A stretch of 64,000 bases of DNA from positions 5,890,001 through 5,954,000 of the forward strand of contig NZ_LT607755.1 in assembly GCF_900090275.1 (NCBI RefSeq). Direction: 5' to 3'. Positions 1,374 through 37,581 of the stretch are shown in pieces (positions within the stretch are counted from its first letter, which is position 1; each line of letters opens with the position of its first letter). The notes beneath the pieces were generated by a model. It made no database searches. It saw only the letters and a program-made list of their open reading frames with translations, and was not told the origin of the DNA. The stretch is from Micromonospora zamorensis (GTDB taxonomy: Bacteria > Actinomycetota > Actinomycetes > Mycobacteriales > Micromonosporaceae). The translations under genes and the position numbers were made by a program.

Positions 1374-1390
1374 GTCCCACATTCCTTTCG

Positions 1391-3069: not shown

Positions 3070-3075
3070 TAACCT
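3070..3075 (+). promoter_or_regulatory. -10-like TAACCT for a possibly leaderless methyltransferase mRNA
   Basis: TAACCT ends 7 nt before the ATG at 3083, and no Shine-Dalgarno sequence is present. This spacing is typical of actinobacterial leaderless transcripts. No clear -35 is visible. Confidence 0.35.
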
Positions 3076-3082
3076 GCCCGGC

Positions 3083-3823
3083 ATGGCGGATCACACCCAG
3101 GCTCTCTCATTCGGTGCGGCGGCAGCCGACTACGACCGCTTTCGTCCCCGTTATCCGGAACCGGCAGTGCGGTGGGCACTGGACGGGTTGGGGAGTTCCG
3201 CCCGCATCGTCGACCTGGGCGCGGGCACCGGCATCCTCACGCGCGGCGTGCTCGCCCTGGGCCACGAGGTGACACCCGTGGAGCCGGACCCCGCCATGCG
3301 CGCCCAACTGGCAGCCGCCACCCCCGGACTCACGGCGTTGGCCGGTGGCGCGGAGTCGGTGCCCCTGCCCGACGAGGTCGCGGACACCGTGGTGGTGGGG
3401 CAGGCGTACCACTGGTTCGACCGGGAGCTGGCGCACATCGAGATCGCCCGGGTGCTGCGGCCCGGCGGGACGTTCGCCCCGATCTGGAACATGCGCGACG
3501 ATCGGGTGGACTGGGTCGCCGAGCTGGGCCGGATCGCACACCTGGGGGACAACGCCGGCAACGTGATCGAGAGGTACACCGAGTTCGGCCCCGCGTTCGA
3601 GCCGATCGAGCTGGGCGAGTTCAACCACCACACCACGCTCACACCGGACGACATCGTCGCGATGCTGCACACCCGCTCATACTGGCTCACCGCCCCGGCC
3701 GAGCGGCGGGCGACGATCGACCAGGAGCTGCGGGAGCTCCTGGCCACCCACCCCGAACTGGCCGGTCGGGAGACCGTCGAGCTGCCGTACCGCACGATGG
3801 TCCTGCGGGCCCGGCGGCGCTGA
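3083..3823 (+). CDS. Class I SAM-dependent methyltransferase
   Basis: 246 aa with a Methyltransf_11-type fold. Motif I VDLGAGTGILTRG is at about residue 43, an acidic residue at the end of strand 2 lies in VEPDPAMR, and WFDRELAHIEIARVLRPGG (about 113-131) is the typical post-motif region. The substrate cannot be inferred. The start MADHTQALSFGAAAADYDRFRPRYPEPA fits small-molecule methyltransferases of actinomycetes. It stands alone on the plus strand between lysS and coaX, both on minus. Confidence 0.85.
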   Translation: MADHTQALSFGAAAADYDRFRPRYPEPAVRWALDGLGSSARIVDLGAGTGILTRGVLALGHEVTPVEPDPAMRAQLAAATPGLTALAGGAESVPLPDEVADTVVVGQAYHWFDRELAHIEIARVLRPGGTFAPIWNMRDDRVDWVAELGRIAHLGDNAGNVIERYTEFGPAFEPIELGEFNHHTTLTPDDIVAMLHTRSYWLTAPAERRATIDQELRELLATHPELAGRETVELPYRTMVLRARRR

Positions 3824-24630: not shown

Positions 24631-24636
24631 GACTAG

Positions 24637-24642
24637 ACGGTA
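24637..24642 (-). promoter_or_regulatory. -10-like TACCGT of folP
   Basis: Minus-strand TACCGT, then 6 nt, then the folP GTG; no SD. Consistent with a leaderless promoter, though no good -35 is visible. Confidence 0.35.
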
Positions 24643-24694
24643 CCGGTCGCGGCAGCGGCGTTCGCCGGCCCGGGTCGGGCTCCCATCACCACCC

Positions 24695-24724
24695 CTGACG
24701 TGCTCGTTAGAACAGGTGTACGAT
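24695..24724 (+). promoter_or_regulatory. Possible SOS-controlled promoter of the secretion-like operon
   Basis: CTGACG (24695-24700) and TACGAT (24719-24724) have an 18-bp spacer. TAGAACAGGTGTACGA (24708-24723) overlaps the -10. It matches 14 of 16 positions of the actinobacterial LexA box TCGAAC-N4-GTTCGA, with one mismatch in each half-site. Confidence 0.4.
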
Positions 24725-24761
24725 CGGTCATTCGGGCAGCATCGGGCAGGCCCTTCGCGGC

Positions 24762-24790
24762 TTGTCGCAATCCGGGGCGGCCCGTACGCT
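24762..24790 (+). promoter_or_regulatory. Predicted promoter of the secretion-like operon
   Basis: TTGTCG (24762-24767), a 17-bp spacer and TACGCT (24785-24790). Transcription would start near 24797 and give a leader of about 190 nt before the GTG at 24987. Confidence 0.5.
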
Positions 24791-24986
24791 TTGGAATTGG
24801 CCAGCATCGAGATGGCGAAGCTTGGAGGGAGGGCCGAAGCGGGGGAAAACCGCCCAAACCTCGCCACCCTCCGTGGTGAGTAACGAACGCAGGGTCAAGA
24901 ACGCTGCGCCCTGTGGAGCACATTTCCCGCCAGGTTCGTCCATTGCACCGCCGCGGCACCGCCGGCCGCGCTATGGGGAGGTTCCA

Positions 24987-25301
24987 GTGATCGCCTTCGA
25001 GCTCATGGAGACGGCGTCTTCGGGCGTCGCCCACGCGCTCTCCACTCTGGCGTCGACTCCACTCGCGGAGCCGGCACCGAAGGGGATCGACACCAACAGT
25101 GTCGTCACCTTCTTCGCCAGCAAGATCGCGCCGATCCTGCTCGCCGTCCTGGGCGTCATCTTCATCGGTCGCGCCAGCCGGGGCGAGATCTCCAAGGTGC
25201 TGACCAGCTCCGCGATCGCCATCGTCGGGCTCGCGTTCATCGCTGGCGCGGCAACACTTTTCTTCGTCGGCGATTACCTGATCGACCTGATCTTCGAATA
25301 G
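24987..25301 (+). CDS. VirB2/TrbC-like two-TM small protein (candidate pilin)
   Basis: 104 aa. About 45 mostly polar residues (VIAFELMETASSGVAHALS...) precede two membrane segments (APILLAVLGVIFIGRA and SAIAIVGLAFIAGAATLFFVGDYL) separated by a short basic loop RGEISK. Size, topology and place at the head of a VirB4-containing operon suggest a VirB2/TrbC-type subunit. Primary sequence alone would not prove it. GGGGAGG lies 5 nt before the GTG; a longer frame upstream overlaps the predicted promoter and is rejected. Confidence 0.6.
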   Translation: MIAFELMETASSGVAHALSTLASTPLAEPAPKGIDTNSVVTFFASKIAPILLAVLGVIFIGRASRGEISKVLTSSAIAIVGLAFIAGAATLFFVGDYLIDLIFE

Positions 25302-25314
25302 GCGCGTTCACCAG

Positions 25315-25677
25315 ATGCGGCTGCGCACCGACGACGACATCTACCGGGCCCGCCTGGTCTACCTCGGGCCGCCCGGTTACACCCTTCCGGTCCACCTGCC
25401 CTACGCCCAGTACGGGCTCTTCATGCTGCTGGTCCCCCTCTACATGTTCATCCACTGGCTGTTCACGTTGACGGTCGAGCTCTTCCCGGCCTGGGAGATC
25501 GCGCTCGCCATCGTGACCACGTCGTTCATCTTCCGGCACGTCGACCCCGATCGGCCGGCGCGGGTGGTCATCCGCACCGCGCTGACCGACTGGCGACGCA
25601 CCCGGGAGCCGGCGATCGAGCAGCGCGATCCGCGTCTGGTCGGCAGCCGGATCAGGATTCGGGAGGAGCTGGCATGA
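25315..25677 (+). CDS. VirB3/PrgI-like small membrane protein
   Basis: 120 aa. Basic N-terminus (MRLRTDDDIYRARLVYLG), two adjacent membrane segments (about 31-67, QYGLFMLLVPLYMFIHWLF and FPAWEIALAIVTTSFIF) and a basic soluble tail. In Gram-positive type IV secretion loci a PrgI/TcpE/VirB3 protein of this size directly precedes the VirB4 ATPase, as here. 13 bp after the pilin-like gene; its stop overlaps the next mini-ORF (ATGA). Confidence 0.6.
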   Translation: MRLRTDDDIYRARLVYLGPPGYTLPVHLPYAQYGLFMLLVPLYMFIHWLFTLTVELFPAWEIALAIVTTSFIFRHVDPDRPARVVIRTALTDWRRTREPAIEQRDPRLVGSRIRIREELA

Positions 25678-25751
25678 CCGGGCGTACGCCGATCGGTCCG
25701 TCGCACGACGCGGGCGACACCGTGCCCACAGTCGCTGAGGCGGTCGCATGA
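25674..25751 (+). CDS. 25-aa mini-ORF coupled to the VirB4-like gene
   Basis: Reads MTGRTPIGPSHDAGDTVPTV plus five more residues. GGGAGGAG precedes the ATG by 5 nt, a strong SD. The ATG overlaps the upstream stop (ATGA) and its own stop overlaps the VirB4-like ATG (ATGA). It may be a real micro-protein or a translational relay; it has no hydrophobic segment or known motif. Confidence 0.45.
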   Translation: MTGRTPIGPSHDAGDTVPTVAEAVA

Positions 25752-28700
25752 GCCGCTCTTCCACGCCGGGTTCTCCGGCCGGCCGCCCGGCCGGGCCGGC
25801 AGGTCACCGTGCGCACTCGTTCGACTACACCGAGGATGAGGACGAGGTGGCGCTCGACCCCGCGCTGGTGACGTCACCCGGCCACGGCGCGGTCGGCGTG
25901 TTCCAGGCGCCCCGGCCGATTCCGCGCCGGACGCCCCCGGCCGAGCCCAGCGCGGTCTCGGCCGGCGAGAACGCCGACATCGACTCCCCTTTCCTGGACC
26001 TCTTCGGCGGCGCTCGGCCCGGCGGGGCGCGAGCCGTCACGGCCGGCCCGAGCACCCGGGAGCAGCCGGCGATCCCGCAGCAGCAGCTCCCGGCACCAGC
26101 TCGACCGGCTCCCGAGCTGGAGCCACCGTGGACGCCCGACGACCAGGCCGGCGGCCGCAGTGTCGAGCCCCGACACGGCGGCGCTCACCTGGGCGGCGAG
26201 TCACGGGTGCCGCATCAGGCCGGCGACCGGCTGCCGATGGTCCGTCCGCCGCGCGAGCCGGACGTCACCCCCGACGGCACATCCGGGTCGAGGCCCAACG
26301 GCCCGACGACCCGACAACCTGACATCGCACCCACCGCACGGCCGACGGCAACGCCGTCGAGTCGGCCAACGGCACCGGTGGACCAGCCAGTGTCGCCGGT
26401 TGGCGGACCAACCGCCCCGGTGGATCGCCCGGCAGTCCGCGCAAGAGCGGACCGGCCAGCTCTGGAGGGGACCCAGCGCCGCGCCGCCGACTCGGAGCGA
26501 CCCAAGGGTGCCGGGAAAGAGGTCGCCCCACCCCGCGAACGTGGTGCGAGCCGCCAGGACCGACCGACCAAGCCGACCCGGATCCGCGCCCCGAAGATCA
26601 AGTTCGGTGACCGGGACCCGGCGGTCGAGCTGGCCATCACCGAGATCGCCGGTCACCTGACCTTCACTCCCAACACGGTCACCGCCTGGTACTGGCTGCC
26701 CGAGGTTCGCTGGGCGTTCCGCCCGGACGCCGAACGCGAAGCGTTGTTGTCGGCGATCTCCGAGCAGTACGCCGGCCTGGCCGGCTTCCGGCTGCACCTG
26801 CGCCGCACCACCCGGCCGTTCCCCGCCGACGAGTGGGCGCGCACCATCGACGCCCACACCGCCGCACCGCTCGCCGACGTTCCCGGCACCACCGGCTGGG
26901 CCGACCACCTGGTCGCCGCCCAGCGGCACCTGATGGCGGTCAACCACGCCGAAGGCCAGACCTACCTGGGTGTCACCTTCGCCCGCCGATCCCTCGGCGA
27001 CTCGCTCACCGAACGCCTGCTGCGCACCTTCGGTCGGGGCACCGCCGACGGCGAACGCCGCAAGCTGGGCCGCACCGTGGAGCAGTTCGACGAGGTGCTC
27101 GGCGCGTTCGGCATGCGCGGCCGACGGGTCACCGCACAGGAGCTCGAATGGCTGCTCTACCGCTCGGTGGCGCTGTGCATGGCACCCCCCGGGCGGCTCT
27201 CCCCGGTGACCAACGGCCAGTGGGAGCGCGGTGACCTGCTCGCCCTGACCGAGCAGGTCGAGCGCTACCGCACCCCGTACGGCTCCACAGTCAAGCTGGT
27301 CAACCGGATGACCGGCGAGGAACGGCACGTGGCCGTGCTCGCGGTCGGCCGGATGGAGCCGCTGGAGATCCCGGAACGGCACGAGCCCTGGCTGCACTTC
27401 CACGAGCGGCTGCCCTGGCCGATGGAAATCTCCACCCGCGTCGACATCCTCGGCTCCGGCGACTCCTTCCGTAACCTCGAACACCGGCTACGGATGATCC
27501 GCTCCCAGCAGCTCGACTACGCCGAGCACGGCATCGACGCACCGCCGGAGCTGGAGCGACTGGCCAAGCGGGCGCTGGTGATCGGCGACGAGATGACCAC
27601 CGGCCTGCCGGTCGACTCGGCCCGCGCGCACGGCTGGCACCGGATCGCCGTCGGCGGCCGGACCAGGGAGGAGTGCATGGAGCGGGCCCGCAGGCTCATC
27701 CAGCTCTACTCCCGGGAGCTGCGCATCTCGCTGCAACACCCGAAGAACCAGGACTGGCTGGCCCGCGAGTTCATCCCCGGCGAGCCGATCGCCAACACCG
27801 GCTACGTTCGCCGCATGCCGGTGCCGCTGCTGGCCGCCGCACTCCCCCAGGCCGCATCGAACGTGGGCGACCGGCGGGGCGACCTCATCGGCCGGACCGC
27901 TGGCACCTGCCGCCGCCCGGTCTTCCTCGACCTGCACTTCCCCATGGAGGTCCGGGAACGCTCCGGGCTCGCTGTCTTCGTCGCCGAACCGGGCGGTGGA
28001 AAGTCCACCCTGCTCGGCGCGCTGGGCTACCTGGCCGCCCGCAGAGGTGTCCAGGTGACCCTGCTCGACCCGTCCGGGCCGCTGGCCCGACTCTGCGCCA
28101 TGCCCGAGCTGCGGCCGTACTCCCGGGTGTTGAACCTGACCGGCTCGGAGCACGGCACCCTGGCGCCCTACTCGCTCATCCCGACGCCACTGCGCAGCGA
28201 GTTCGGCGCCGGGGCCGCCGGTGACCGGGAGTTCGAGATCGCGGTCTCCAACGCGCGGGCCGAACGGCGAATGCTGGTCCAGGACATCTGCATGATGCTC
28301 GTTCCGCCGCAGGTCGCCCGGGAGGCGTCGACCGCCACCCTGTTCCGGCACGCGGTCCGTCAGGTCCCCGCCGAGGAGACGTCCACCCTGGACGACGTCG
28401 TGAGCTGCCTCGGGCGCCTCGACGACGACGCCGGCAAGGAGCTGGCCAACCTCCTGCTGGACACCGCCGAGATGCCCCTGGCCATGCTCTTCTTCGGCCG
28501 ACCACCGGAAGGGCTGCTCGGCGCCGACGCCGCGCTGACCGTGATCACCATGGCCGGGCTGCGGTTGCCCGACCTCAAGATCGAACGGGAGTACTGGTCA
28601 GCCGAGGAGGCACTGGCCCTGCCGATGCTGCACACCGCGCACCGGCTCGCCGTACGCCGCTGCTACGGCGGCTCGATGTCGTCGCGCAAGCTCGTCGGCT

Positions 28701-29161
28701 TGGACGAGGCGCACTTCATGGAGGGCTGGCGATCCGGGCGTTCATTCCTGGTCCGGCTCGCCCGCGACTCCCGCAAGTGGAACCTCGCCGCGCTGGTCGC
28801 CTCGCAGAACCCCAAGGACATCCTCGGCCTCGACGTGCAGAACCTCGTCTCCACCGTCTTCGTCGGCCGGATCGCCGAGGACGCCGAGATCGCCTCCGAA
28901 GCGCTACGACTGCTGCGGGTGCCCGTCAACGACGGGTACGAAGCCACCCTCGCCTCACTCTCCGCCGCCGACACCAGCTCGTCCAACCGGCTCGGCTTCC
29001 GCGAGTTCGTGATGCGCGACGTCGACGGGCGGGTACAGAAGGTCCGCGTCGACGTCTCGTACGTCGAAGGGCTCCTGGACCACCTCGACACGACGCCCGC
29101 CGCGATCGCCGCGGCGGCTGGAGTGCTGCCGAGCATCCCCCTGCCGGATCTGGAGGCGTGA
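25748..29161 (+). CDS. VirB4/TraC-like conjugation or secretion ATPase
   Basis: 1137 aa. The first 285 residues are Pro/Arg/Ala-rich and look disordered. From about 290 (IRAPKIKFGDRDPAVELAI) a conserved N-terminal domain follows, then the AAA-type ATPase: Walker A AEPGGGKSTL (about 745-754) and Walker B LVGLDEAHF (about 981-989). VASQNPKDILGLDVQNLVSTVFVGRIAEDAE (about 1017-1047) matches the VirB4 sensor/arginine region. It would energise assembly or transport at the membrane. GAGG lies 7 nt before the ATG. This is the best-supported hallmark gene of the block. Confidence 0.85.
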   Translation: MSRSSTPGSPAGRPAGPAGHRAHSFDYTEDEDEVALDPALVTSPGHGAVGVFQAPRPIPRRTPPAEPSAVSAGENADIDSPFLDLFGGARPGGARAVTAGPSTREQPAIPQQQLPAPARPAPELEPPWTPDDQAGGRSVEPRHGGAHLGGESRVPHQAGDRLPMVRPPREPDVTPDGTSGSRPNGPTTRQPDIAPTARPTATPSSRPTAPVDQPVSPVGGPTAPVDRPAVRARADRPALEGTQRRAADSERPKGAGKEVAPPRERGASRQDRPTKPTRIRAPKIKFGDRDPAVELAITEIAGHLTFTPNTVTAWYWLPEVRWAFRPDAEREALLSAISEQYAGLAGFRLHLRRTTRPFPADEWARTIDAHTAAPLADVPGTTGWADHLVAAQRHLMAVNHAEGQTYLGVTFARRSLGDSLTERLLRTFGRGTADGERRKLGRTVEQFDEVLGAFGMRGRRVTAQELEWLLYRSVALCMAPPGRLSPVTNGQWERGDLLALTEQVERYRTPYGSTVKLVNRMTGEERHVAVLAVGRMEPLEIPERHEPWLHFHERLPWPMEISTRVDILGSGDSFRNLEHRLRMIRSQQLDYAEHGIDAPPELERLAKRALVIGDEMTTGLPVDSARAHGWHRIAVGGRTREECMERARRLIQLYSRELRISLQHPKNQDWLAREFIPGEPIANTGYVRRMPVPLLAAALPQAASNVGDRRGDLIGRTAGTCRRPVFLDLHFPMEVRERSGLAVFVAEPGGGKSTLLGALGYLAARRGVQVTLLDPSGPLARLCAMPELRPYSRVLNLTGSEHGTLAPYSLIPTPLRSEFGAGAAGDREFEIAVSNARAERRMLVQDICMMLVPPQVAREASTATLFRHAVRQVPAEETSTLDDVVSCLGRLDDDAGKELANLLLDTAEMPLAMLFFGRPPEGLLGADAALTVITMAGLRLPDLKIEREYWSAEEALALPMLHTAHRLAVRRCYGGSMSSRKLVGLDEAHFMEGWRSGRSFLVRLARDSRKWNLAALVASQNPKDILGLDVQNLVSTVFVGRIAEDAEIASEALRLLRVPVNDGYEATLASLSAADTSSSNRLGFREFVMRDVDGRVQKVRVDVSYVEGLLDHLDTTPAAIAAAAGVLPSIPLPDLEA

Positions 29162-29162
29162 C

Positions 29163-31118
29163 ATGGCGAGGGCCCGAGCGAGGATCGTGTCGTTCCTGCT
29201 CGCCCTCGGCGTACTGGCCGGGGCCTCACTCAGCTGGCCGCTGATCGGAGCGGAAGCCGCAGCCGCCGCACCGCCCGTGGCCCAGGCCCGCGCCGACCTC
29301 TGCACCACGGCCGAGTGGCAGGCCGACTTCCGGGCCTGCGTGGGAAAGCTCCAAGCGGTCAGTGAGGACGAGGTCAAGTGTCGTAACGCGCCGACCCCCG
29401 GCACGCCGGACTCTGGACTCGCCGGCTGGTTCGCCGGCCGGCCAGACTCCGCCAAGGAACTCGGGCCGAAGGGGCTTTACAGCGACTACGGCTACGCCGG
29501 CTACAGCTACCCGACCTACGACATCCCAGGCGGTTGCGCGTCGTCGGTCCTGCATCCGGACTACAAGTTCACCACCACCGTGGCGAACGGGGAGTTCATG
29601 ATCGCCACCGCGATCGTCGGCGCTTCGAACGCGTTGCGAGAGCGGGCCTGGGATCCGCGTTCGATGTGGGGTTGGGCCGATCCCCTGGTCGAGCAGGCAA
29701 CAAAGGCCGTTTACCAGAAGGTCTTCAGCGTCTTCGGCATCGTCACCCTCTGCGTGGTGGGGCTATATCTGCTCTGGCGGTCCCGCCAATCGGACATGAG
29801 TAACGCGATGACCACCGCGGGCTGGGCGCTGCTCGTGATGGTCGCGGTCACGGCCCTGGCCGCCTGGCCGGTCAAGTCGGCGAACATCGCGGACGGCACG
29901 CTGGTCACCACGTTGGGTGTGGTGCATGACGCCGTGGGTCCTGCGGCCCGAGACACCCCACCGGACCGTTGCGTCGTCCCCAACCCAGACGCTTGTGTGG
30001 ACAAGCGGCCACCCGCTGTGCGAGCCAGTGACACCGCCACCGAGGCGATGCTCTACCGGAACTGGCTGCGTGGAGTACTCGGCTCCGCCGACAGCGAGAC
30101 CGCTCGCAAGTACGGCCCAGCCTTGTACGACGCGAAGGCGCTTTCCTGGGACGAGGCAGAGAAGCTGCGCGCCAACCCGGCTACCCGGGAGGCGACGATC
30201 AAGGCGAAGCAGCAGCAGTGGGCGCGGGTGGCCCAGCAGATCCAGACCGAGGATCCGGAGGCGTACGAGTATCTCCAGGGTGTGCGGGACATGGATCGGG
30301 TGGGCGCGGGATTCATCGCGGTGCTGGCCGCGTTTCTGTTCGCGATGTTCGACCTGACAGCGTCGTTGCTGGTTCTGCTGGGCTTCCTCATCTTCCGGTG
30401 GGCGGTGATCGCGGCACCCATTCTCGGCACGGTCGGTCTGCTCCGGCCGGCCAGTGCTGGGCTGCGCCGGCTGGCGAACGCGGTCGTGGCCGCCGTCTTC
30501 AACATCGCCATCTTCGGCACCGGGGCTGCCATCTATCTGTTCGCTGTCGACCTGATCATGAGCACGCCCACCCTGCCGGGCTGGCTCCAGGTGGTACTGG
30601 TCTGGCTCTGCGGCGTGGTCGGCTGGCTGCTGCTGCGGCCGTACCGGCGAATCACCCAACTCGGCGGCAAGGACAGCAGCGAAGCGGTCAGCTCCGCCGG
30701 GTCCTGGCACCGCCGGTTCTTCCGGGACATGCGGACAGCCGCGCGACTGGACGTGGCCGAGCCGGGTGGCACGGCCGAACCGGTGGGTGGGCGTCGACGG
30801 TCGCCGAACGCGGAGCAGACCCGGCTGCGCCCGGAGGCCCGCCGGGAGGACCCGGTCTCCACGCCGACGGTTGTTGCCGAGGGCCAGCGTGCTGGCGCCG
30901 GGCGACCCGACGGTCGGGAACGGCCCGACGAGGCACCGGCGGAGGAGACCAGAGGCCGAGGTCGTCCGGTCGCCCCCCAACCTCGTCGCCGGCAGCCGGC
31001 GACGTGGACCGAGCCGGACGTGCCGGCCGAGAACCCGTCGTTCGTGGTCTACCGTCCGGGCTCCACGGAGCGCACGCCGGACCGGACCGGACCGCGGGTG
31101 CGCTCAGAGGCACGGTGA
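29163..31118 (+). CDS. VirB6/TrbL-like polytopic membrane protein
   Basis: 651 aa. A signal-like N-terminus (to about residue 38) is followed by an exported region with several Cys. At least six membrane segments lie between about 180 and 500, among them VFSVFGIVTLCVVGLYLLW, AGFIAVLAAFLFAMFDL, ASLLVLLGFLIFRWAVIAAPILG and VAAVFNIAIFGTGAAIYLF. A hydrophilic 140-residue Arg-rich tail is probably cytosolic. Topology and position after VirB4 fit the TrbL/VirB6 channel component. It starts 1 bp after the VirB4-like stop. Confidence 0.65.
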   Translation: MARARARIVSFLLALGVLAGASLSWPLIGAEAAAAAPPVAQARADLCTTAEWQADFRACVGKLQAVSEDEVKCRNAPTPGTPDSGLAGWFAGRPDSAKELGPKGLYSDYGYAGYSYPTYDIPGGCASSVLHPDYKFTTTVANGEFMIATAIVGASNALRERAWDPRSMWGWADPLVEQATKAVYQKVFSVFGIVTLCVVGLYLLWRSRQSDMSNAMTTAGWALLVMVAVTALAAWPVKSANIADGTLVTTLGVVHDAVGPAARDTPPDRCVVPNPDACVDKRPPAVRASDTATEAMLYRNWLRGVLGSADSETARKYGPALYDAKALSWDEAEKLRANPATREATIKAKQQQWARVAQQIQTEDPEAYEYLQGVRDMDRVGAGFIAVLAAFLFAMFDLTASLLVLLGFLIFRWAVIAAPILGTVGLLRPASAGLRRLANAVVAAVFNIAIFGTGAAIYLFAVDLIMSTPTLPGWLQVVLVWLCGVVGWLLLRPYRRITQLGGKDSSEAVSSAGSWHRRFFRDMRTAARLDVAEPGGTAEPVGGRRRSPNAEQTRLRPEARREDPVSTPTVVAEGQRAGAGRPDGRERPDEAPAEETRGRGRPVAPQPRRRQPATWTEPDVPAENPSFVVYRPGSTERTPDRTGPRVRSEAR

Positions 31119-31672
31119 CGGCGATGCGACGGGCTCTGGAGTTTCTCTTCACCCGAGCGCTGCGGTCCCGGCTGGGAGTGGCACTGGTCATCGCGGTGAT
31201 CGTCCTCGGTGTGCTCGGGGCGGCACGGCTGATCTCCGACCCGGCCGCTCCGGCGGACGGATTGAGTAACCGGCCGAACCGGCCGATCACCACCGTGGAC
31301 CCGACGGCTGGCGACGATGGCGTGCTCACCAGCCCGGCGCCACCGTCACCCGTGACGTCGCCCGGCGCCGGCACGCCGGAGCAGACCTCCGACCGTTTTG
31401 CCGCAGCCTGGCTCGGCCGACCTGGAATGACCGCTGAGCAGTGGCAGGACGGCCTCAAGCCGTTGTCCACACCGGCGCTGACCGAGAAGCTCGCCGGTGT
31501 TGATCCCGAGGGCGTCCCGGCCGAGAAGGTCAGCGGCGCACCGTCGGTGCGGGCGCGCACCGAGACGTTCGTCGAGGTACTACTGCCGCTCGACAACGGC
31601 CAACTGCGGCTGGAACTGGTGGCTGCGGATGGCGGATGGCTGGTCGACGTGGTGGATTGGGAACGGCCATGA
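31115..31672 (+). CDS. VirB8/TcpC-like single-TM protein
   Basis: 185 aa. A short cytosolic part, one membrane segment (SRLGVALVIAVIVLGVLGAA), a Pro/Thr linker, then an about 100-residue extracellular domain (EQTSDRFAAAWLGRPG... to GGWLVDVVDWERP) with the alternating pattern of NTF2-like folds seen in VirB8 and TcpC. Similarity is structural inference, not a motif match. The GTG at 31115 overlaps the VirB6-like stop (GTGA); ATG 31124 is the alternative start. Confidence 0.55.
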   Translation: MTAMRRALEFLFTRALRSRLGVALVIAVIVLGVLGAARLISDPAAPADGLSNRPNRPITTVDPTAGDDGVLTSPAPPSPVTSPGAGTPEQTSDRFAAAWLGRPGMTAEQWQDGLKPLSTPALTEKLAGVDPEGVPAEKVSGAPSVRARTETFVEVLLPLDNGQLRLELVAADGGWLVDVVDWERP

Positions 31673-32829
31673 CCGGCGCCAGCCGGCAGTCGGTGCGGAT
31701 CGGCGTGATCGCCAGCATCCTCACCGGTGTGCTTCTCCTCCTCTGCTGCACCGGGGGTACTGCGGCGTTCTTCCTCAGTGGGCTCGGCGGCGACGGTGAG
31801 GACGGGGACTCCTTGGCAGGCTTCGGCTGCGGCCCGATCCGCCCGGTGGACATCGTGGGCGAGTTGCCGCGGTTCACCGAGTACGGCGACGCACAGGTCC
31901 GCAACGCCGCCATCATCATCAAGGTCGGCCAGGACCTGGGGGTGCCCTCCCGGGGCTGGGTGATCGCGCTGGCGACCGCGATGCAGGAATCCGCGCTGCG
32001 CAACCTGGCGAACAGTGACGTGCCCGAGTCCCTGGCCCTGCCACACGAGGGCGTCGGAGCGGACCACGACTCGCTGGGCCTGTTCCAGCAGCGGCCGGGG
32101 TGGGGCTCGGTCGCCGAGCGGATGACCCCCTCGTACACGGCTCGCAAGTTCTACGAGAAGCTCGTCAAGGTCCGGAGCTGGCAGCGCCGACCGCTGACGG
32201 TGGTGGCGCAGCAGGTTCAGATCAGCGCCTATCCGGACGCGTACGCCAAGCACGAGGAGCTGGCCAGCAAGATCGTGGATGCGCTGGCCGGTGGGGCGGC
32301 CCGTACCGTCGAGATCAACGGCAAGGCGGTGTGCGACGCGGCCGAGCGTGGCGAGATTGCTGCCTCCGGCTGGACCGCGCCGATCCCTGGCGACGTCGGT
32401 TCCGGCTTCCGCACCGCCAGCCGGCCCAGCCACAACGGGGTGGACATCGGCGCGGCCAAGGGCACCGAGATTCGCGCCGCCGCAGCCGGTCGTGTGCTGG
32501 TCGCCCGCTGCGACCCGGACAACAGGGGCCGGCGGGACTGCGACGTGGACGGCTACCCCGACAAGGGCGGCTGCGGTTGGTACGTCGACCTGCTGCACGC
32601 TGGCGGCTACATCACCCGGTACTGCCACATGGTGGTTCAGCCGCGCGTCAGACTGCATCAGATCGTCCCGGCCGGTGAGGTCATCGGGCAGGTTGGCAGC
32701 AGCGGCAACTCGTCCGGGCCGCACCTGCACTTCGAGGTGCACCTGCGCAACGACCGGTCCAGCCGGGGCGCGGTCGATCCGGTCCCGTTCATGCGCGCAC
32801 GGGGTGCCCCGCTGCGCGCCGCCGAGTGA
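31669..32829 (+). CDS. Bifunctional cell-wall hydrolase: transglycosylase-like plus M23 peptidase
   Basis: 386 aa. One N-terminal membrane segment (RIGVIASILTGVLLLLCC), then a lysozyme/transglycosylase-like domain (VIALATAMQESALRNLANS with the putative catalytic Glu, DSLGLFQQRPGWGS; about 90-190), then an M23 endopeptidase domain. The metal motifs of M23 are present: HNGVDIG (about 256-262) and HLHFEVH. Such two-domain hydrolases open peptidoglycan for conjugation machines. Its ATG overlaps the VirB8-like stop (ATGA). Confidence 0.85.
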   Translation: MTGASRQSVRIGVIASILTGVLLLLCCTGGTAAFFLSGLGGDGEDGDSLAGFGCGPIRPVDIVGELPRFTEYGDAQVRNAAIIIKVGQDLGVPSRGWVIALATAMQESALRNLANSDVPESLALPHEGVGADHDSLGLFQQRPGWGSVAERMTPSYTARKFYEKLVKVRSWQRRPLTVVAQQVQISAYPDAYAKHEELASKIVDALAGGAARTVEINGKAVCDAAERGEIAASGWTAPIPGDVGSGFRTASRPSHNGVDIGAAKGTEIRAAAAGRVLVARCDPDNRGRRDCDVDGYPDKGGCGWYVDLLHAGGYITRYCHMVVQPRVRLHQIVPAGEVIGQVGSSGNSSGPHLHFEVHLRNDRSSRGAVDPVPFMRARGAPLRAAE

Positions 32830-32842
32830 GACCGCCACGGGG

Positions 32843-33442
32843 ATGACCGGACCGCTGCCGGACCCGTTCGCCGACCAGCCCGACTGGGCACCACGGCCAC
32901 CCCGTCCGCTGACCATCGTCCCCGCCACCGAGCGGGTGGAACTCCGCGGGCGCCGAGTTCTCGTCGGGCTGCCGGGGCTGGGCTGGCGCGGCGACCTGCG
33001 CGCGGACGACCGGGTGGTGCAGAGCGCCAGGACCTACGTGCCGGTGATCCCCGAGCACGAGTGGTACCGCGCCGAGGCCGACCAGGTCGAAGTGTTCGCG
33101 CCGCTGGTGCCGGTGGAGCGGGTCTGGGTGGAGACGGTCGGCAGGCAGGTTGACTCGGAAGGTGGTCGGGACACCGGAATCCGGCTGGTCTCGCTGGACG
33201 GTCCGGCACACCGGACCCCCACACCGGTCTTCGAGGCGGACGCCGTCACCGGGCGCCGGGTCGTGCACGTCGAGGGCGGTCTGGAGCACCGCGACCTGCG
33301 AGCGGTCACCGAAACCTACTCCGGTGCCGAAGGGGACATCTGCGTGCGGATCACGCCCGAGGTGGAGTGGTACCGCTGGGCCTGGCGCGGTCAGTCACCC
33401 ACCACGCTGGAGGTCCCGGTCCATCTGTTGTGGATCGAGTGA
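32843..33442 (+). CDS. Hypothetical protein, last gene of the secretion-like operon
   Basis: 199 aa, no membrane segment. Pro-rich N-terminus (MTGPLPDPFADQPDWAPRPPRP), then a beta-rich region: RVELRGRRVLVGLPGLGWRGDLRADDR, VIPEHEWYRAEADQVEVFAPLVP and a second similar piece near the end, VRITPEVEWYRWAWRG. No family recognised. 13 bp after the hydrolase gene and in the same direction, so a part of the same unit. The two EWYR segments (about 73 and 173) hint at an internal duplication. Confidence 0.55.
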   Translation: MTGPLPDPFADQPDWAPRPPRPLTIVPATERVELRGRRVLVGLPGLGWRGDLRADDRVVQSARTYVPVIPEHEWYRAEADQVEVFAPLVPVERVWVETVGRQVDSEGGRDTGIRLVSLDGPAHRTPTPVFEADAVTGRRVVHVEGGLEHRDLRAVTETYSGAEGDICVRITPEVEWYRWAWRGQSPTTLEVPVHLLWIE

Positions 33443-33445
33443 GAG

Positions 33446-34012
33446 TCAGCTGGCCCGTGTGCCGCCGCAGACTCGCCACCCATCATCGTTCTTTGTTTCG
33501 AACCGCCAGGGCTGACGATCGCTTTGATTTATACCGTCTACACGAGCGGAAATGATCAATGTGACCTCGACAGCAGCGTTGTCGCCCTGCTTCTGGTCGT
33601 TGAGTCTCGCCCAGCTGACAGAAATCGTTACGGCAAAACGCTTCTCACGCTCGAGAAGGTCGGCCCGCAGGGCGTCCAGTGCCTCCAACTGCGCCCCGCG
33701 CTCGCAGGTGTAGAGAGCGGCCCTTGCGTCGTTGCGATCCACGAGGAATGCGCGCAGGTAGTTGTCCACCGCCACGTCGGGTGCGCTGCGATCCGGGGCC
33801 GCCGCTCGGTTGTACAGCACATATCCCGCAATGACCCCGCCCAGGCAGAGCAACGCCAGCACCCCAGCCACGACCGTGAGCACCGTCCGCATTCGGCGGC
33901 GAGGCGGCTGCGGCGCCGGCGTCGGTGGGGCCGGCGGCAGTTGCTCGGACGGTGTCCGTTGGGCCGGTACGCGGGAGACCTGGGAACCGGCGGGGGGCTG
34001 CACTGATTCCAC
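33446..34012 (-). CDS. Single-TM protein with NTF2-like extracellular domain
   Basis: 188 aa. Pro-rich cytosolic part, RRRMRTVLTVVAGVLALLCLGGVIAGYVLY membrane segment (about 39-68), then DVAVDNYLRAFLVDRNDARAALYTCERGA... and VEVTLIISARVDGINQSDRQPWRFETKNDDGWRVCGG, which looks NTF2-like. The base composition around 33500-33640 is less GC-rich than the neighbours. Convergent with the previous gene (3-bp gap), so separately transcribed. It may be functionally tied to the block or a passenger. Confidence 0.6.
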   Translation of the reverse strand: MESVQPPAGSQVSRVPAQRTPSEQLPPAPPTPAPQPPRRRMRTVLTVVAGVLALLCLGGVIAGYVLYNRAAAPDRSAPDVAVDNYLRAFLVDRNDARAALYTCERGAQLEALDALRADLLEREKRFAVTISVSWARLNDQKQGDNAAVEVTLIISARVDGINQSDRQPWRFETKNDDGWRVCGGTRAS

Positions 34013-34160
34013 CTCCTGAAGTTATCGGCTGGACGCCCCGGAGCCAATAGCCTCAGATCCAGCGGATCGTGACGGACCCCTCCCCACCGGTGAGATCCAC
34101 GACATCCCTGGCGCATCGCCGGGGCACCTCCCGGAGGAGCGGACCCGGCTGGGATACCGT

Positions 34161-34195
34161 CTCTGCTCGGGAGGGGTTGCCAACCTCGGGCAGAG
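34161..34195 (+). promoter_or_regulatory. Imperfect hairpin before the FtsK-like gene
   Basis: CTCTGCTCGGG (34161-34171) pairs 9 of 11 with CTCGGGCAGAG (34185-34195). The right arm overlaps AGAGGGGG, the SD of the GTG at 34208, so the fold could limit translation. Confidence 0.35.
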
Positions 34196-34207
34196 GGGGT
34201 GGACGCG

Positions 34208-36760
34208 GTGGCCGGTCCGAAGGCACGTACGAACCGCGCCGCAGCTCTGCACCGACGGGCGGCGGCCGTCGCCACCGCAGCCGCCGGGATCCTGGACGAG
34301 ACCCGACCCGCTCCGGCCGATCAGCGCCGCCAGTACGAGGTGGCCGACCGCCTGCGGGAGGTTGCGGCACGACTGGCGCCGGGTTGGTCGGGCGCGGCTC
34401 TGGACTCGCTCACCGTGGAGACTCCGGCGGGTGACTGTCCGCCGCCGTTCGTCCGGGTCGGCACGGCAGCGCCGTTGGACGACGCCCGCTTTCCCGCGTT
34501 GGTGCCACTGGTCGGCACCGGTCATCTGAGCGTGGACGCTGACGCCCGGGAGCCGCGGGTGGCGGGGTTGCTCCGGGCCGTACTCCTGCGGTTGTTGGGT
34601 GCGGCACCGGCGGGTGCCCTGTTGATTCGCGCGGTGGATGCCACGGGTGTCGTGCTGACGCCGTTCGGTGCGCTCGCTGATGCTGGCCTGCTGCCGCCGC
34701 CGGCGGTGGACGTGGCGAGTCTGCGTGCGGTGCTGACCGAGGCGGAGCAGTGGGTCACGCCGGGTGCGAGCGGGCGACGCCGCCACGACCGGACGTTGTT
34801 GTTGGTGGTCGCGGCGCTGCCGGATTCGACCGGTCCGAGTGATCTGGCGCGGATCGAGGCGCTGGCCGAGCAGGGGCCTGCGGCGGGGCTGCACCTGGTG
34901 GTGGCGGGCTGGCCGCCGGCCGGCCCGTATTCGGCCCGGGCGCCGCTGCCGCACACCACCTCGTTGGTGCTGCGCAACGCGTACGCGTTGCTCGGTGATC
35001 CGCCGGGGGCGTCCTTCGCCGGGCCGGGCGCCGATCCGCCGGGTGGCTTGAACTCACCGGTCTTCGTCGAGTCGGACCCGCCGGCTGAGCTGGTCGATGC
35101 GGTCTGTCGGCGGCTCGCCGAGCAGGTGGAGGCGGGTTCCCGGTTGGGGTTGGCGGCCCTGTTGCCGGTGACGGGTGAGCGGCTGTGGGAGTCGAGTTCC
35201 GCGGACGGGTTGACGACTACAGTCGGTGACGCCGGGGGCCGGTCGGTGCCGTTGGGCTTCACCGAGCTGACTCCGCACTGGCTGGTGAGCGGCCGGTCCG
35301 CCGGAGGTCGCGCGGCGTTCCTGACCACCGCGTTGCTCGGTCTGGCCGCCCGGTACGGCCCGGACGATCTGGCGCTCTACCTGGCGGATCTCGGTGACGG
35401 TGAGTCCTTCGTGGAGTTCCTGCAGACCGAGCGCGACCGGTCGTGGATTCCGCAGGTGCGCGCTGCCGCGATGGCCGCCGACCGGGAGTACGTCCGGGAT
35501 CTGCTCGACGAGCTGACGGCCGAGGTGCAGCGGCGGACGGAGGCCGGTGCGCGGGCTGGCGGGCAGCGCTTCGCGGAGTTGCGTCAGCATCGGCAGCTGC
35601 CGCGGATCGTCTGTGTGTTGGATAATGTGCCGCTGCTCTTCGCCGAACGGGACCGGTTGGCGGCCGAGGTGGCGGCGCAGTTGGACGGGCTGGCCCGGGC
35701 CGGTCGGGCGTACGGCGTGCATCTGGTGCTGGCCGGTGCGGGTGAGCTGGGGTTGAGTGCCCGCGCGGATGCCGGTCACCGGGATTCGGTGCTCGGGCAG
35801 TTCCCGGTGCGGGTGGCGTTGCCGGGTGGCAGCCCGGTGTTGGAGCCGACGAACGATTCGGCGGCTGGTCTGCCGGTGGGCAGCGCGGTGGTCAACACCG
35901 CTGGTGGGCTCGGTGGTCCCCGGGGCGCGATCCGAGGTCACGAACGGTTGATCCGTCACCCCGACCCGCAGGACCACCCGGATGTGGTGGAGGCGCTGCG
36001 GCACGAGCTGTGGGCGGCCCGGCCGGCCGGTTCGGTCCCACCGGTGGTCTTCGCCGGTTACGCCCGACCCCTGTTGAGCAACGATCCGCGACACCGGGCG
36101 GCCCTGGCGGGGCAGGCCCACGGTCCGGCCGCTCTGCTGGGTCGTGCGGTGGACGTGACCCGCTCGACGGTCGCCGTGCCGTTGGGGCCTGCGGCCGGGC
36201 GCAACCTGGCGGTGCTGGGGTCGGGTGTCGCAGCGGGCGGGCTGCTGGTCACGGCGGCCCGGAGCACCGCGGACCATCACCCGCCGGGCACCGCCCGTTT
36301 CCTGGTGGCGGCACCGGACCCGGGCTCCCGAGCGCTGGCGGAGGCGTTGACGGCCGAGTTGGCGGCCCGGCATTCGGCCGAGATGGTGGATCTGCCGACG
36401 CTGCTCGCGGACCCGCCCGACGAGTTGCCGACGTACTTGGTGGTCTTCGGCCTGGACCGGCCGGGTCCCCGGGAGCTGCCGGTGGACCGGCTGCGGGCGC
36501 TCCTGCGGGACGGGCCGCCGGCCGGCAGACACCTGCTGGGCTGGTGGCGGGCGGTGCCGCCGTTCGCTGCGCTGTTCGAGCCGGCGGGCGAGGTCGACAA
36601 GCTTGCCGCCGTGGTCGTGTTGGACGTGCCGGTCGCGCAGCTCACTCCGGTCTTCGGGCGGCCGGTGGAGTGGCGGGCCCGCCCCGACCGGGCGGTGCTC
36701 TGGGACGGCCCGGACGAGCGGGGCAGGGTCCTGGTGCCGTTCGCCGACGAGGCCGGCTGA
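34208..36760 (+). CDS. FtsK/SpoIIIE-like protein with degenerate ATPase motifs
   Basis: 850 aa. Layout resembles actinobacterial FtsK/SpoIIIE-domain proteins: helical N-terminus, FVRVGTAAPLDD...LVPLVGTGHLSVDA (about 80-110), a central ATPase-like domain (about 345-560) and a C-terminal one. The expected P-loop reads SGRSAGGRAAF (about 361-371), with Arg and Ala in place of Lys and Ser/Thr. The Walker B position reads RIVCVLDNVP, lacking the Glu. The second P-loop, LGSGVAAGGLL, also lacks Lys. Probably a pseudo-ATPase. GTG 34208 is chosen for AGAGGGGG 8 nt upstream. Confidence 0.7.
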   Translation: MAGPKARTNRAAALHRRAAAVATAAAGILDETRPAPADQRRQYEVADRLREVAARLAPGWSGAALDSLTVETPAGDCPPPFVRVGTAAPLDDARFPALVPLVGTGHLSVDADAREPRVAGLLRAVLLRLLGAAPAGALLIRAVDATGVVLTPFGALADAGLLPPPAVDVASLRAVLTEAEQWVTPGASGRRRHDRTLLLVVAALPDSTGPSDLARIEALAEQGPAAGLHLVVAGWPPAGPYSARAPLPHTTSLVLRNAYALLGDPPGASFAGPGADPPGGLNSPVFVESDPPAELVDAVCRRLAEQVEAGSRLGLAALLPVTGERLWESSSADGLTTTVGDAGGRSVPLGFTELTPHWLVSGRSAGGRAAFLTTALLGLAARYGPDDLALYLADLGDGESFVEFLQTERDRSWIPQVRAAAMAADREYVRDLLDELTAEVQRRTEAGARAGGQRFAELRQHRQLPRIVCVLDNVPLLFAERDRLAAEVAAQLDGLARAGRAYGVHLVLAGAGELGLSARADAGHRDSVLGQFPVRVALPGGSPVLEPTNDSAAGLPVGSAVVNTAGGLGGPRGAIRGHERLIRHPDPQDHPDVVEALRHELWAARPAGSVPPVVFAGYARPLLSNDPRHRAALAGQAHGPAALLGRAVDVTRSTVAVPLGPAAGRNLAVLGSGVAAGGLLVTAARSTADHHPPGTARFLVAAPDPGSRALAEALTAELAARHSAEMVDLPTLLADPPDELPTYLVVFGLDRPGPRELPVDRLRALLRDGPPAGRHLLGWWRAVPPFAALFEPAGEVDKLAAVVVLDVPVAQLTPVFGRPVEWRARPDRAVLWDGPDERGRVLVPFADEAG

Positions 36761-36788
36761 TCCGGTGACGCGAGCGGGGGGTGTCGAG

Positions 36789-37508
36789 ATGGGTCCGAAC
36801 GCGACGGTGACCGGGCCGGGGCGGCAGCGGGCCGCTGCGGCGGGCGGAGACGCCACGCCGACGGCGGTCGAGCCCGGCGCGGCCTGGGGTGAGTATCTGG
36901 CCGCGGCACGTCAGCTGGACGGGGTACGCCGCAGCGCGGCTGCCGCAGCGGGTGAGCAGGCCCGGTCGGCGGAGGCTGCCCGGGAGGAGCTGACGGTGGT
37001 CCGTAGTGGGCTCGCTAGTCAGCAGGAACTTCTGCGGGAGCTGGGCGTACCGGCGATCTCCCTGGTGCCGTCGCCGCCGGAGCTGACCGAGGCGGCCCGG
37101 TCGATGGCGGGCGGCCCGGCTGCGGTGTTGGCGGCGCTGCGGGCCGCGCGGGGTCGAGCCGAGGCGGCGGACGCGGCCCTGGCCGCGCGCGGCCGGTTCC
37201 GGCCGGGGTCGTGGCCGGCGCGGGCCCGCAACCTCCTGGTGTACGGGCCGTTCGCGCTGGTGGTGCCGCTGATCCAGGTCGCGGTTTACGCGGCCACGGG
37301 GATCGGGCCGGCCAGTGTGGCGGCGTTGATCTGCGGGCTGCCGATGCCGGCGGTCGCGTTCGTCGCCGGGTGGGTGGGCATCGGTCGGTTGTTCCGTGTG
37401 GGCCCCGCCGAGCGGCTGGACCGTACGGTGCGCTTCGGCGCGCTGGTGTGCCTGGTGCCGGCGGTGCTGGTCACGGCAGGCCTGTTGCTGGCCCTGCTGG
37501 CCGGCTGA
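36789..37508 (+). CDS. Coiled-coil membrane protein downstream of the FtsK-like gene
   Basis: 239 aa. An Ala-rich helical N-terminal half (about 30-130, [32 protein letters not shown]...) is followed by three membrane segments (NLLVYGPFALVVPLIQVAVY, VAALICGLPMPAVAFVAGWVG, FGALVCLVPAVLVTAGLLLALL). No family recognised. It lies 28 bp after the FtsK-like gene in the same direction, so the pair may be a functional unit. ATG 36789 has GGGGGGTG upstream; a GTG at 36765 is in frame. Confidence 0.6.
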   Translation: MGPNATVTGPGRQRAAAAGGDATPTAVEPGAAWGEYLAAARQLDGVRRSAAAAAGEQARSAEAAREELTVVRSGLASQQELLRELGVPAISLVPSPPELTEAARSMAGGPAAVLAALRAARGRAEAADAALAARGRFRPGSWPARARNLLVYGPFALVVPLIQVAVYAATGIGPASVAALICGLPMPAVAFVAGWVGIGRLFRVGPAERLDRTVRFGALVCLVPAVLVTAGLLLALLAG

Positions 37509-37545
37509 CCACCGGGGTCTCCCGGGAGGACGGGCAGCAACGGAA

Positions 37546-37581
37546 ACGGCCGGCCGTCCCGGGAGGGGGTCGGCCGGCCGT
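37546..37581. terminator. Bidirectional hairpin between the 13-kb block and folE
   Basis: ACGGCCGGCCG (37546-37556) pairs perfectly with 37571-37581 around a 14-nt loop, between two convergent genes (stops at 37508 and 37598). Confidence 0.65.

What the first reader, a model, noticed from the sequence alone, without database searches (positions are those of the whole stretch)
24762..37581. A chromosomal type IV secretion-like block inserted between folE and folP
Operon genes encode a VirB2-like pilin, VirB3-like, VirB4-like ATPase, VirB6-like channel, VirB8-like protein and a two-domain cell-wall hydrolase, in the order usual for Gram-positive conjugation machines. Absent here are a relaxase, VirD4 coupling ATPase, integrase, att repeats and other plasmid genes, and the composition matches the chromosome. 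It splits a folate operon that is continuous in M. tuberculosis. It may therefore be a domesticated system for secreting protein or moving DNA, with a pseudo-ATPase FtsK-like protein next door.
Basis: partly seen in the sequence, partly recalled or inferred. Interest (0 to 1): 0.75.

Follow-up and report, generated by a model that had tools for sequence, protein, structure and literature searches.

The report
Chromosomal type IV secretion machine, family-wide
Nearly all sampled members of one family of soil bacteria carry, as an inherited part of their chromosome, the core of a DNA-transfer machine usually found on plasmids, without the usual parts that choose and load plasmid DNA, so it has probably been taken over for a job of the cell's own that is not yet known.

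Summary
Seven + strand genes (24987-33442) encode VirB2-, VirB3-, VirB4-, VirB6- and VirB8-like proteins, a muramidase/M23 wall hydrolase and a 199-aa tandem-repeat protein. Coordinate 24762 is not a gene start but lies in a conserved promoter-like element. The FtsK-like gene pair at 34199-37508 is a separate neighbour.

On five fetched actinobacterial plasmid stretches the same gene order recurs; homology is clear for VirB3, VirB4, VirB6 and the hydrolase, weak to moderate for VirB8, barely visible for VirB2. Four of the five have a VirD4- or FtsK-type coupling gene nearby. The VirB8 model's best solved match is PrgL of pCF10. This genome holds one VirB4, no PF02534 VirD4 and no MOBF relaxase; a distant FtsK/EccC-type protein narrowly passes two coupling-protein domain cut-offs.

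It is no recent remnant: VirB3 occurs in 113 of 121 family genomes (42 of 44 genera), the core order is kept in 18 other genera, family VirB4s form one fully supported clade, and dN/dS is low. The folE/folP site is not universal.

Best reading: an ancient domesticated T4SS serving its host. The substrate is unknown; DNA uptake, two-step export and a surface filament remain open.

The parts
24762..24790 (+). Promoter-like element TTGTCG-N17-TACGCT; the finding's start coordinate falls on its first base
   Evidence: a pattern around it (CTTG..CGTACG) occurs once in the 64-kb window on both strands together, and upstream of virB2 in 56 of 87 loci, each time with the same length; the sigma-70 reading is mine and activity is not tested
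24791..24986 (+). Leader of about 195 nt, conserved in sequence among Micromonospora; no known RNA family and no support for a conserved fold
   Evidence: no Rfam match; alignment of 14; 55 distinct sequences: consensus energy -10.8, covariation term +0.48; the script then stopped on an error
24987..25301 (+). VirB2-like small pilin candidate, 104 aa, two hydrophobic segments (42-60, 76-94)
   Evidence: only weak similarity to the first gene of plasmid blocks (best E 0.003); no Pfam match
25315..25677 (+). VirB3-like membrane protein, 120 aa, just before virB4; slowest evolving of the 11 proteins compared
   Evidence: (E 3e-10 to 8e-6 to five plasmid proteins at the same position); no Pfam match
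25748..29161 (+). VirB4-like ATPase, 1137 aa, Walker A GGGKS and Walker B LDE present; N-terminal 250 residues variable
   Evidence: profile reaches the solved VirB4 4ag5, 2e-5 for the whole sequence; Walker A pattern in 79, Walker B pattern in 72 of 80 loci
29163..31118 (+). VirB6-like membrane protein, 651 aa, six hydrophobic segments
   Evidence: (E 4e-53 to 2e-18 to plasmid proteins at the same position); no known VirB6 profile or structure matched
31124..31672 (+). VirB8-like protein, 182 aa, one membrane segment and an NTF2-like C-terminal domain
   Evidence: the model's two best PDB matches are the PrgL VirB8 domain 7aed (E 4e-3 and 6e-3, probability 1.00, TM to target 0.47-0.50)
31669..32829 (+). 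VirB1-like wall hydrolase: membrane anchor, muramidase-like domain, M23 endopeptidase domain
   Evidence: M23 3.9e-23; solved muramidases 8b2h, 8b2e, best E 3e-24; HLHFE in 80, HxGVD in 79 of 80 loci
32843..33442 (+). orf199, soluble 199-aa protein of two homologous halves; likely operon member, function unknown
   Evidence: 80 of 80 loci; 15 of 20 loci; tandem Tudor/SH3-like by non-significant fold matches, best E 0.06; halves align, E 1e-7
33446..34012 (-). Neighbour, convergent: Rv0361-like protein with one membrane segment; not part of the machine
   Evidence: (34.9 bits against a cut-off of 37)
34199..36760 (+). Neighbour: FtsK/EccC-like protein without the Walker A lysine; no detectable similarity to the plasmid coupling proteins
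   Evidence: (42% to own paralogue P0001; E 0.79 or worse to plasmid FtsK/VirD4)
36789..37508 (+). Neighbour: 239-aa protein with two C-terminal hydrophobic segments, next to the FtsK-like gene

Best explanation
An ancient, chromosomally fixed (domesticated) type IV secretion core of Micromonosporaceae. It is related to the kind of transfer module carried by actinobacterial plasmids, and has no VirD4-type gene or relaxase beside it. Shown by sequence: gene set and order, ATPase motifs, wall-cutting motifs, single-clade inheritance, low dN/dS. Inferred mechanism: the muramidase/M23 protein opens the wall; VirB6, VirB3 and VirB4 form the membrane complex, with VirB8 on the outer face; VirB4 uses ATP to build, and perhaps retract, a short VirB2 filament through the opened wall; orf199 may be a cytosolic adaptor. 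Without a dedicated VirD4 the machine is unlikely to load relaxase-bound DNA in the usual way. My order of likelihood for its use, all inferred: DNA uptake or exchange of cellular DNA (about 0.35), a contact or adhesion filament between hyphae or to surfaces (0.25), release of proteins that first leave by Sec or Tat (0.25), something else (0.15).
For: Same gene order on five plasmid stretches and homology protein by protein, clear for VirB3, VirB4, VirB6 and hydrolase. VirB8 fold, VirB4 profile and motifs, muramidase plus M23. One AAA_10 match in the genome; no PF02534 and no PF08751 match in it, while named control genomes gave matches. VirB3 in 113 of 121 family genomes, 42 of 44 genera. In 20 further loci from 18 genera, chosen because they have VirB3: VirB2, VirB4, VirB6 and hydrolase in 20, VirB8 in 19. 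VirB4 dN/dS 0.08-0.19 in five comparisons. Distances of 11 proteins track FolP distance in 57 loci, r 0.67-0.89, 0 of 200 permutations as high. Family clade with support 1.0 and a branch of 0.64.
Against: No expression or phenotype is known. VirB6, VirB2 and VirB3 are named by position, hydrophobicity and similarity to plasmid proteins that are themselves named by position. Relaxases other than MOBF were not searched. The FtsK/EccC-type protein P0001 elsewhere in the genome passes the Pfam cut-offs of two coupling-protein domains, narrowly (TraG-D_C 25.5 against 22 bits, TrwB_AAD_bind 20.6 against 20.5; its best match is FtsK_SpoIIIE), so a coupling role for it is not excluded. Eight of 121 family genomes lack a VirB3 match, all three sampled genomes of one genus among them, so the system can be lost. 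The distance correlations also hold for mere neighbours of the block.
Confidence: 0.8

Rival explanations
1. A transfer machine still used for conjugation: resident plasmids, or chromosomal FtsK/EccC-type proteins such as P0001, act as the coupling protein, so that the block is a standing export channel for mobile or chromosomal DNA.
For: Plasmid relatives pair the same block with FtsK/SpoIIIE-domain proteins or a VirD4-type protein. P0001 has an intact Walker A and narrowly passes two coupling-protein domain cut-offs. Five of the 12 sampled congeners have a PF02534 match.
Against: 13 of the 21 genomes searched, G000 included, have no PF02534 match and 19 of 21 no TrwC. The FtsK-like neighbour shows no similarity to the plasmid coupling proteins (E 0.79 or worse) and lacks the Walker A lysine, as in 65 of the 73 loci whose motif was printed, of 76 examined.
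Confidence: 0.14
2. A two-step protein exporter (one of the uses named under the best explanation): substrates leave by Sec or Tat and the VirB filament carries or pushes them through the thick wall, as proposed for the Ptl system.
For: No PF02534 VirD4, a VirB2-like protein kept, two wall-cutting domains. The precedent is described in PMC12857230, section 20 (read in full).
Against: I saw no linked gene that looks like a secreted substrate, and the neighbourhood differs between distant genera; a substrate encoded elsewhere was not sought.
Confidence: 0.22
3. A decayed ICE or plasmid remnant without function.
For: No PF02534 or PF08751 match in the genome and no repeats of the tested kind at the ends.
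Against: Family-wide conservation, low dN/dS, ATPase and hydrolase motifs kept in nearly all of 80 loci, conserved promoter-like element.
Confidence: 0.03

Closest known systems
T4SS modules of actinobacterial plasmids (Streptomyces pSM17C and NEAU-S7GS2 unnamed1, Nonomuraea NBC_00507 unnamed1, Pseudonocardia p1; Prescottella pVAPN more distant)
   Same: Same order VirB2-VirB3-VirB4-VirB6-VirB8-wall hydrolase; VirB4 32-37% identical
   Different: Plasmid-borne; a VirD4 or FtsK-type coupling gene is annotated near in four of the five stretches (none listed in the Pseudonocardia one); NlpC/P60 domains in the plasmid hydrolases, by count; no orf199 homologue in the five stretches, but a partial match (41% of orf199, 33% identity, E 2e-7) lies about 8 kb beyond virB4 on one further virB4-bearing plasmid, Streptomyces SN-593
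Gram-positive conjugation systems (pCF10 Prg, Tn916, pCW3 Tcp)
   Same: VirB8 domain of PrgL is the best structural match; the TcpF model matches VirB4; anchored two-domain wall hydrolase
   Different: No relaxase or VirD4-type gene beside the block here; sequences far apart; chromosomally fixed
Patescibacteria T4SS
   Same: Monoderm, VirB1/B3/B4/B6/B8-like set with VirB2-like pilins, needed by the cell itself (PMC12857230, passages of section 22 seen)
   Different: Has a VirD4-like component and a pilin gene cluster; no sequence comparison made here
Archaeal Ced/Ted DNA import
   Same: Domesticated, chromosomal, VirB2/VirB4/VirB6-like set, no recognisable relaxase (PMC9905601, passages seen)
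   Different: No sequence link tested; no VirB8 or wall hydrolase in the passages that I saw; import is an analogy only
H. pylori ComB, B. pertussis Ptl, Bartonella Trw
   Same: T4SSs without VirD4 (PMC12857230, section 20 read in full)
   Different: Diderm systems with outer-membrane parts
MiLup08_42651, 'VirB4 protein-like protein', M. lupini Lupac 08
   Same: The only T4SS gene in that paper's table, surrounded by unknown proteins (PMC4182475, passages seen); perhaps the same gene
   Different: No system is described in the passages seen; I did not match the locus tag to L008

Membership tests
Type IV secretion system (Gram-positive core) | VirB4 ATPase with Walker motifs | tested here: met
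   reaches the solved VirB4 4ag5 at 2e-5 for the whole sequence, with no single stretch passing alone
Type IV secretion system (Gram-positive core) | VirB8 with NTF2-like domain | tested here: met
   mean pLDDT 75.9, 85-96 in residues 81-180; best match PrgL 7aed, Foldseek E 4e-3, probability 1.00; no match below E 1e-3
Type IV secretion system (Gram-positive core) | VirB6 polytopic channel | tested here: inconclusive
   six hydrophobic segments and plasmid homologues at the same place; no known VirB6 profile or structure matched
Type IV secretion system (Gram-positive core) | VirB2 and VirB3 small membrane proteins before virB4 | tested here: inconclusive
   position, size and plasmid relatives, weak for VirB2; no profile match
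Type IV secretion system (Gram-positive core) | Anchored wall hydrolase (VirB1-like) | tested here: met
Conjugative element (ICE or plasmid) | VirD4-type coupling protein | tested here: not met
   none beside the block; PF02534 0 in G000. Caveat: PF12696 finds P0001 far away, an FtsK-type protein that narrowly passes PF12696 and PF10412
Conjugative element (ICE or plasmid) | Relaxase | tested here: inconclusive
Conjugative element (ICE or plasmid) | Integrase and att repeats at the ends, patchy distribution | tested here: not met
   no integrase among the ten proteins between folP and folE, no exact 12-base repeat between the tested flanks, 113 of 121 family genomes; integrase not searched genome-wide
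Domesticated DNA-import system (Ced/ComB-like) | DNA uptake depending on the machine | not testable with these tools
   needs a mutant; ComEC and other uptake genes were not searched
T7SS EccC (FtsK-like neighbour) | Match to EccC models and active Walker A | tested here: not met
   EccCa 47 bits against a cut-off of 509; lysine replaced in the window; 5 of the 73 printed motifs, of 76 loci, keep GKT

The most novel reading that the evidence does not exclude
A bacterial, Gram-positive counterpart of the archaeal Ced system: a whole family of filamentous actinobacteria has fixed a T4SS without its own coupling protein that pulls in DNA, or exchanges it between hyphae, as a normal cell function, and this contributes to gene flow in these antibiotic producers.
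Probability: 0.25. Interest if true: 0.88.

Novelty: new variant of a known kind. Interest (0 to 1): 0.66.

Why it matters
T4SSs of monoderm bacteria are best known as machines of mobile elements. The review PMC12857230 (sections 12 and 20 read in full, other passages seen; [quoted passage not shown] A vertically inherited system found in 113 of 121 genomes of an antibiotic-producing family gives a genetically testable case of what such a machine does for its host. Eight searches of the held library (I saw listings, for six of them only the first 10-25 of 33 to 3,816 papers) showed no title or abstract on this block; the one mention found is a single virB4 gene in M. lupini. Papers outside that library were not searched.

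Tried and rejected
Riboswitch or structured leader: no Rfam match (at gathering scores for the window, at E up to 1 for 24600-25350), and the consensus fold of 55 leaders had no covariation support (the script stopped on an error after printing that energy); dropped.

FtsK-like neighbour as the coupling protein: no detectable similarity to the plasmid coupling proteins, Walker A lysine lost, not a constant companion (also missing in L024 and L043).

Defence system: PADLOC gave only overlaps that look like general ATPase similarity (mad8 2.7e-8 for VirB4; SspH 1.3e-8 for the FtsK-like protein); not pursued.

A T4CP or relaxase near the block in distant genera: ten neighbouring proteins from four loci (L133, L135, L137, L142) gave a helicase, DUF4333, PspC, hydrolases, an acetyltransferase and two protease-type matches, two gave none; no T4CP or relaxase among them. 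Other frames of these loci were not scanned.

A recalled Streptomyces operon (SCO4126-SCO4131) as a possible relative: no paper in the library holds both names; recall only, not used. A VirB4 conserved in three Frankia strains and similar to a Streptomyces protein (PMC2266912) may be a related chromosomal case; not tested.

Phage origin: two records with weak matches, 23% identity.

Changed on checking: P0001's passes over two coupling-protein cut-offs, the orf199-like piece on plasmid SN-593, two spurious orf239 matches and the Patescibacteria precedent were added; for P0001 I moved the best explanation from 0.82 to 0.80 and the conjugation rival from 0.12 to 0.14.
Full report
The window is G000:C1:5890001-5954000 of a single-contig genome of 7.10 Mb. 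Among the full-length matches to VirB4 in named genomes the closest is Micromonospora cabrerizensis (96% in the best segment), so the host is a Micromonospora or very near one.

Gene structure. The open frames on the + strand are virB2-like 24987-25301, virB3-like 25315-25677, virB4-like 25748-29161, virB6-like 29163-31118, virB8-like 31124-31672, wall hydrolase 31669-32829 and orf199 32843-33442. Gaps are 1 to 70 bases, with one overlap, which suggests one operon. The finding's start, 24762, is not a gene start: TTGTCG, 17 bases and TACGCT there look like a sigma-70 promoter. A pattern around it occurs once in the window, both strands searched, and upstream of virB2 in 56 of 87 loci, always with the same length (among the 87, the virB2 starts of several of the 20 unnamed loci are uncertain). 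A convergent Rv0361-like gene follows at 33446.

What the proteins are. VirB4 passes Pfam AAA_10 at 5e-24, matches the TcpF model at 1.9e-19 though far below its cut-off, and a profile of ten relatives reaches the solved VirB4 4ag5 (2e-5 for the whole sequence, no stretch passing alone). Walker A FVAEPGGGKS is in 79 of 80 loci and the Walker B pattern in 72 of 80. The VirB8 model (24 sequences, mean pLDDT 75.9) has as its two best PDB matches the VirB8 domain of PrgL from pCF10 (E 4e-3 and 6e-3, probability 1.00, TM-scores 0.37 and 0.47-0.50), with an NTF2-like plasmid-conjugation protein, an IcmL-like protein and OrfG further down among other NTF2-like folds; no match reached E 1e-3. The wall hydrolase has an N-terminal hydrophobic segment, a domain like solved muramidases (8b2h, E 3e-24) and an M23 endopeptidase, with HLHFE in 80 of 80 loci. 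VirB6, VirB3 and VirB2 carry no convincing Pfam match and rest on position, hydrophobic segments (six, one and two) and the plasmid relatives. orf199 has no hydrophobic segment, consists of two homologous halves (E 1e-7) and is modelled fairly well (pLDDT 83.7); its fold matches, to tandem Tudor domains, are not significant (best E 0.06).

Plasmid relatives. tblastn of VirB4 finds 277 of 72,556 plasmid records, none covering 80% of the query; by the rows shown the best are Nonomuraea, Streptomyces and Pseudonocardia plasmids at 34-37%, then Rhodococcus and Prescottella at 31-33%; Enterococcus is the commonest organism in the tally (144 records). I fetched five stretches. In all five the order is the same: small protein, VirB3-like, VirB4, VirB6-like, VirB8-like, wall hydrolase (an extra small frame before virB4 in Nonomuraea and after it in Prescottella). 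The best E-values are 1e-151 (VirB4), 4e-53 (VirB6), 5e-32 (hydrolase), 3e-10 (VirB3), 1e-7 (VirB8) and only 3e-3 (VirB2); the Prescottella VirB8 and the Nonomuraea VirB2 gave no match. A VirD4-type gene lies directly before the block in pSM17C and an FtsK/SpoIIIE-domain gene close by in three others; none is listed in the Pseudonocardia stretch (the plasmid gene tables are incomplete). orf199 has no homologue in the five stretches (E 0.7 or worse); over all plasmids one record matches, Streptomyces SN-593, over 41% of the query (E 2e-7), about 8 kb beyond that plasmid's own virB4.

Missing parts. In the whole genome AAA_10 matches once, at the window's VirB4. PF02534 and PF08751 give no match in G000, while controls ring (5 and 1 of 14). 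PF12696 gives one match, in an 843-aa FtsK/EccC-type protein, P0001, with an intact Walker A. Its best Pfam match is FtsK_SpoIIIE (4e-25), but it also passes TraG-D_C (25.5 against 22 bits) and, by a hair, TrwB_AAD_bind (20.6 against 20.5), so it is not excluded as a coupling protein. It is the 42%-identical paralogue of the FtsK-like gene at 34199. Also against a simple picture: 8 of the 21 genomes searched have a PF02534 match, five of them congeners, and 2 have TrwC, so relatives do carry conjugative elements besides the block. Other relaxase families were not searched.

Distribution and inheritance. One scan of named genomes found 258 loci, of which the best 80 were kept: Micromonospora, Salinispora, Verrucosispora, Plantactinospora, Asanoa, Phytohabitans and an unclassified member of the family. 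In those 80, virB4, virB6, virB8, hydrolase, orf199 and the Rv0361-like gene are found in 80; virB2, virB3 and folP in 66; FtsK-like in 78 (two doubtful, 28% and 33%); orf239 in 73 (two doubtful); folE and ftsH in 64. Of the 14 loci without virB2 and virB3, 12 begin inside virB4 at a contig end; L042 and L073 have sequence upstream without a match and were not followed up. The folE misses are not all due to contig ends. The VirB3 alignment finds 113 of 121 family genomes, 42 of 44 genera; the eight misses are three genomes of one genus, two of another, and three assemblies under 90% complete. I then took 20 loci from 18 other genera, all with VirB3 by choice: virB2, B4, B6 and hydrolase are in 20, VirB8 in 19, orf199 in 15, Rv0361-like in 14, folP in 13 (in four of them turned round), orf239 in 11 by the count but 9 without two spurious matches inside virB4, folE in 9, FtsK-like and ftsH in 8; the stretches reach about 5 kb upstream and 15 kb downstream. 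So the six-gene core is the shared unit; orf199 is a frequent partner; the folE/folP site and the FtsK pair belong to a subset. In the phylum the VirB4 profile finds 9 of 296 genomes at 1e-20, two of them in the family, with at most two candidates scored per genome. In a tree of 49 VirB4 sequences (the ten non-family chromosomal tips stand for six genomes, four of them twice; L098 dropped as too short; L084 left out by choice; 13 of the 80 named loci used) the 35 family sequences are split off with support 1.0 and a branch of 0.64; family plus plasmids has 0.94.

Selection. In five pairwise comparisons VirB4 dN/dS is 0.077, 0.175, 0.149, 0.190 and 0.146; folP gives 0.11-0.18. The hydrolase is less constrained in two comparisons (0.45 and 0.31); VirB8 gives 0.13-0.26. 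Over the 57 loci with the genes required, the distances of 11 proteins, neighbours included, correlate with those of FolP (r 0.67-0.89, 0 of 200 permutations as high); mean protein distance is 0.053 for VirB3 against 0.083 for FolE. These are simple counts on best local alignments.

How it works. Shown: parts, order, motifs, fixation. Inferred: the hydrolase opens the wall, VirB6, VirB3, VirB4 and VirB8 build the channel, VirB4 drives a VirB2 filament. What passes is open. Systems without VirD4 described in PMC12857230 section 20 (read in full) serve DNA uptake (ComB), two-step toxin export (Ptl) or, as proposed there, adhesion pili (Trw); Ced imports DNA in archaea and Ted is thought to (PMC9905601, passages). 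I put DNA uptake or exchange first, weakly, because the retained parts resemble the ComB and Ced sets and the plasmid relatives presumably move DNA.

Prior notice. PMC4182475 (passages) lists one VirB4-like gene as the only T4SS gene of M. lupini, with unknown neighbours. PMC2266912 (passages) notes one VirB4 conserved in three Frankia strains. PMC3218068 (section 9 read) sought T4SS-type ICEs in actinobacteria, requiring integrase, T4CP, VirB4 and relaxase, so a block like this would be passed over. In what I saw, none describes this system.

Noticed in passing
window 34199-36760 and G000:C1 4364596-4367127 (P0001, in L088): Two FtsK/EccC-like paralogues, 42% identical; the one in the window has lost the Walker A lysine, as in 65 of the 73 loci printed, while five keep GKT: a lineage-specific pseudo-ATPase.
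   Followed up: partly
window 25315-25677: virB3 has almost no synonymous change against M. saelicesensis (dS 0.021, while folP has 0.285); recombination or constraint on the DNA itself could explain it.
   Followed up: no
window 24791-24986: A leader of about 195 nt, well conserved in Micromonospora, without Rfam match or covariation support.
   Followed up: partly
G369, G389 and G400: Three family genomes have a second VirB3 match, in two of them of about 100 bits, perhaps plasmid- or ICE-type copies beside the resident one.
   Followed up: no
L082-L086, hydrolase gene, against window 31669-32829: By count, the Micromonosporaceae hydrolases end in M23 and the five plasmid ones in NlpC/P60, one of them (probably L084) having M23 as well: a domain swap in the wall hydrolase.
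   Followed up: no
window 52951-53046: ARAGORN calls a 96-nt tRNA-Gly (gcc), but no tRNA family reaches the Rfam threshold in the window; possibly a false call.
   Followed up: no
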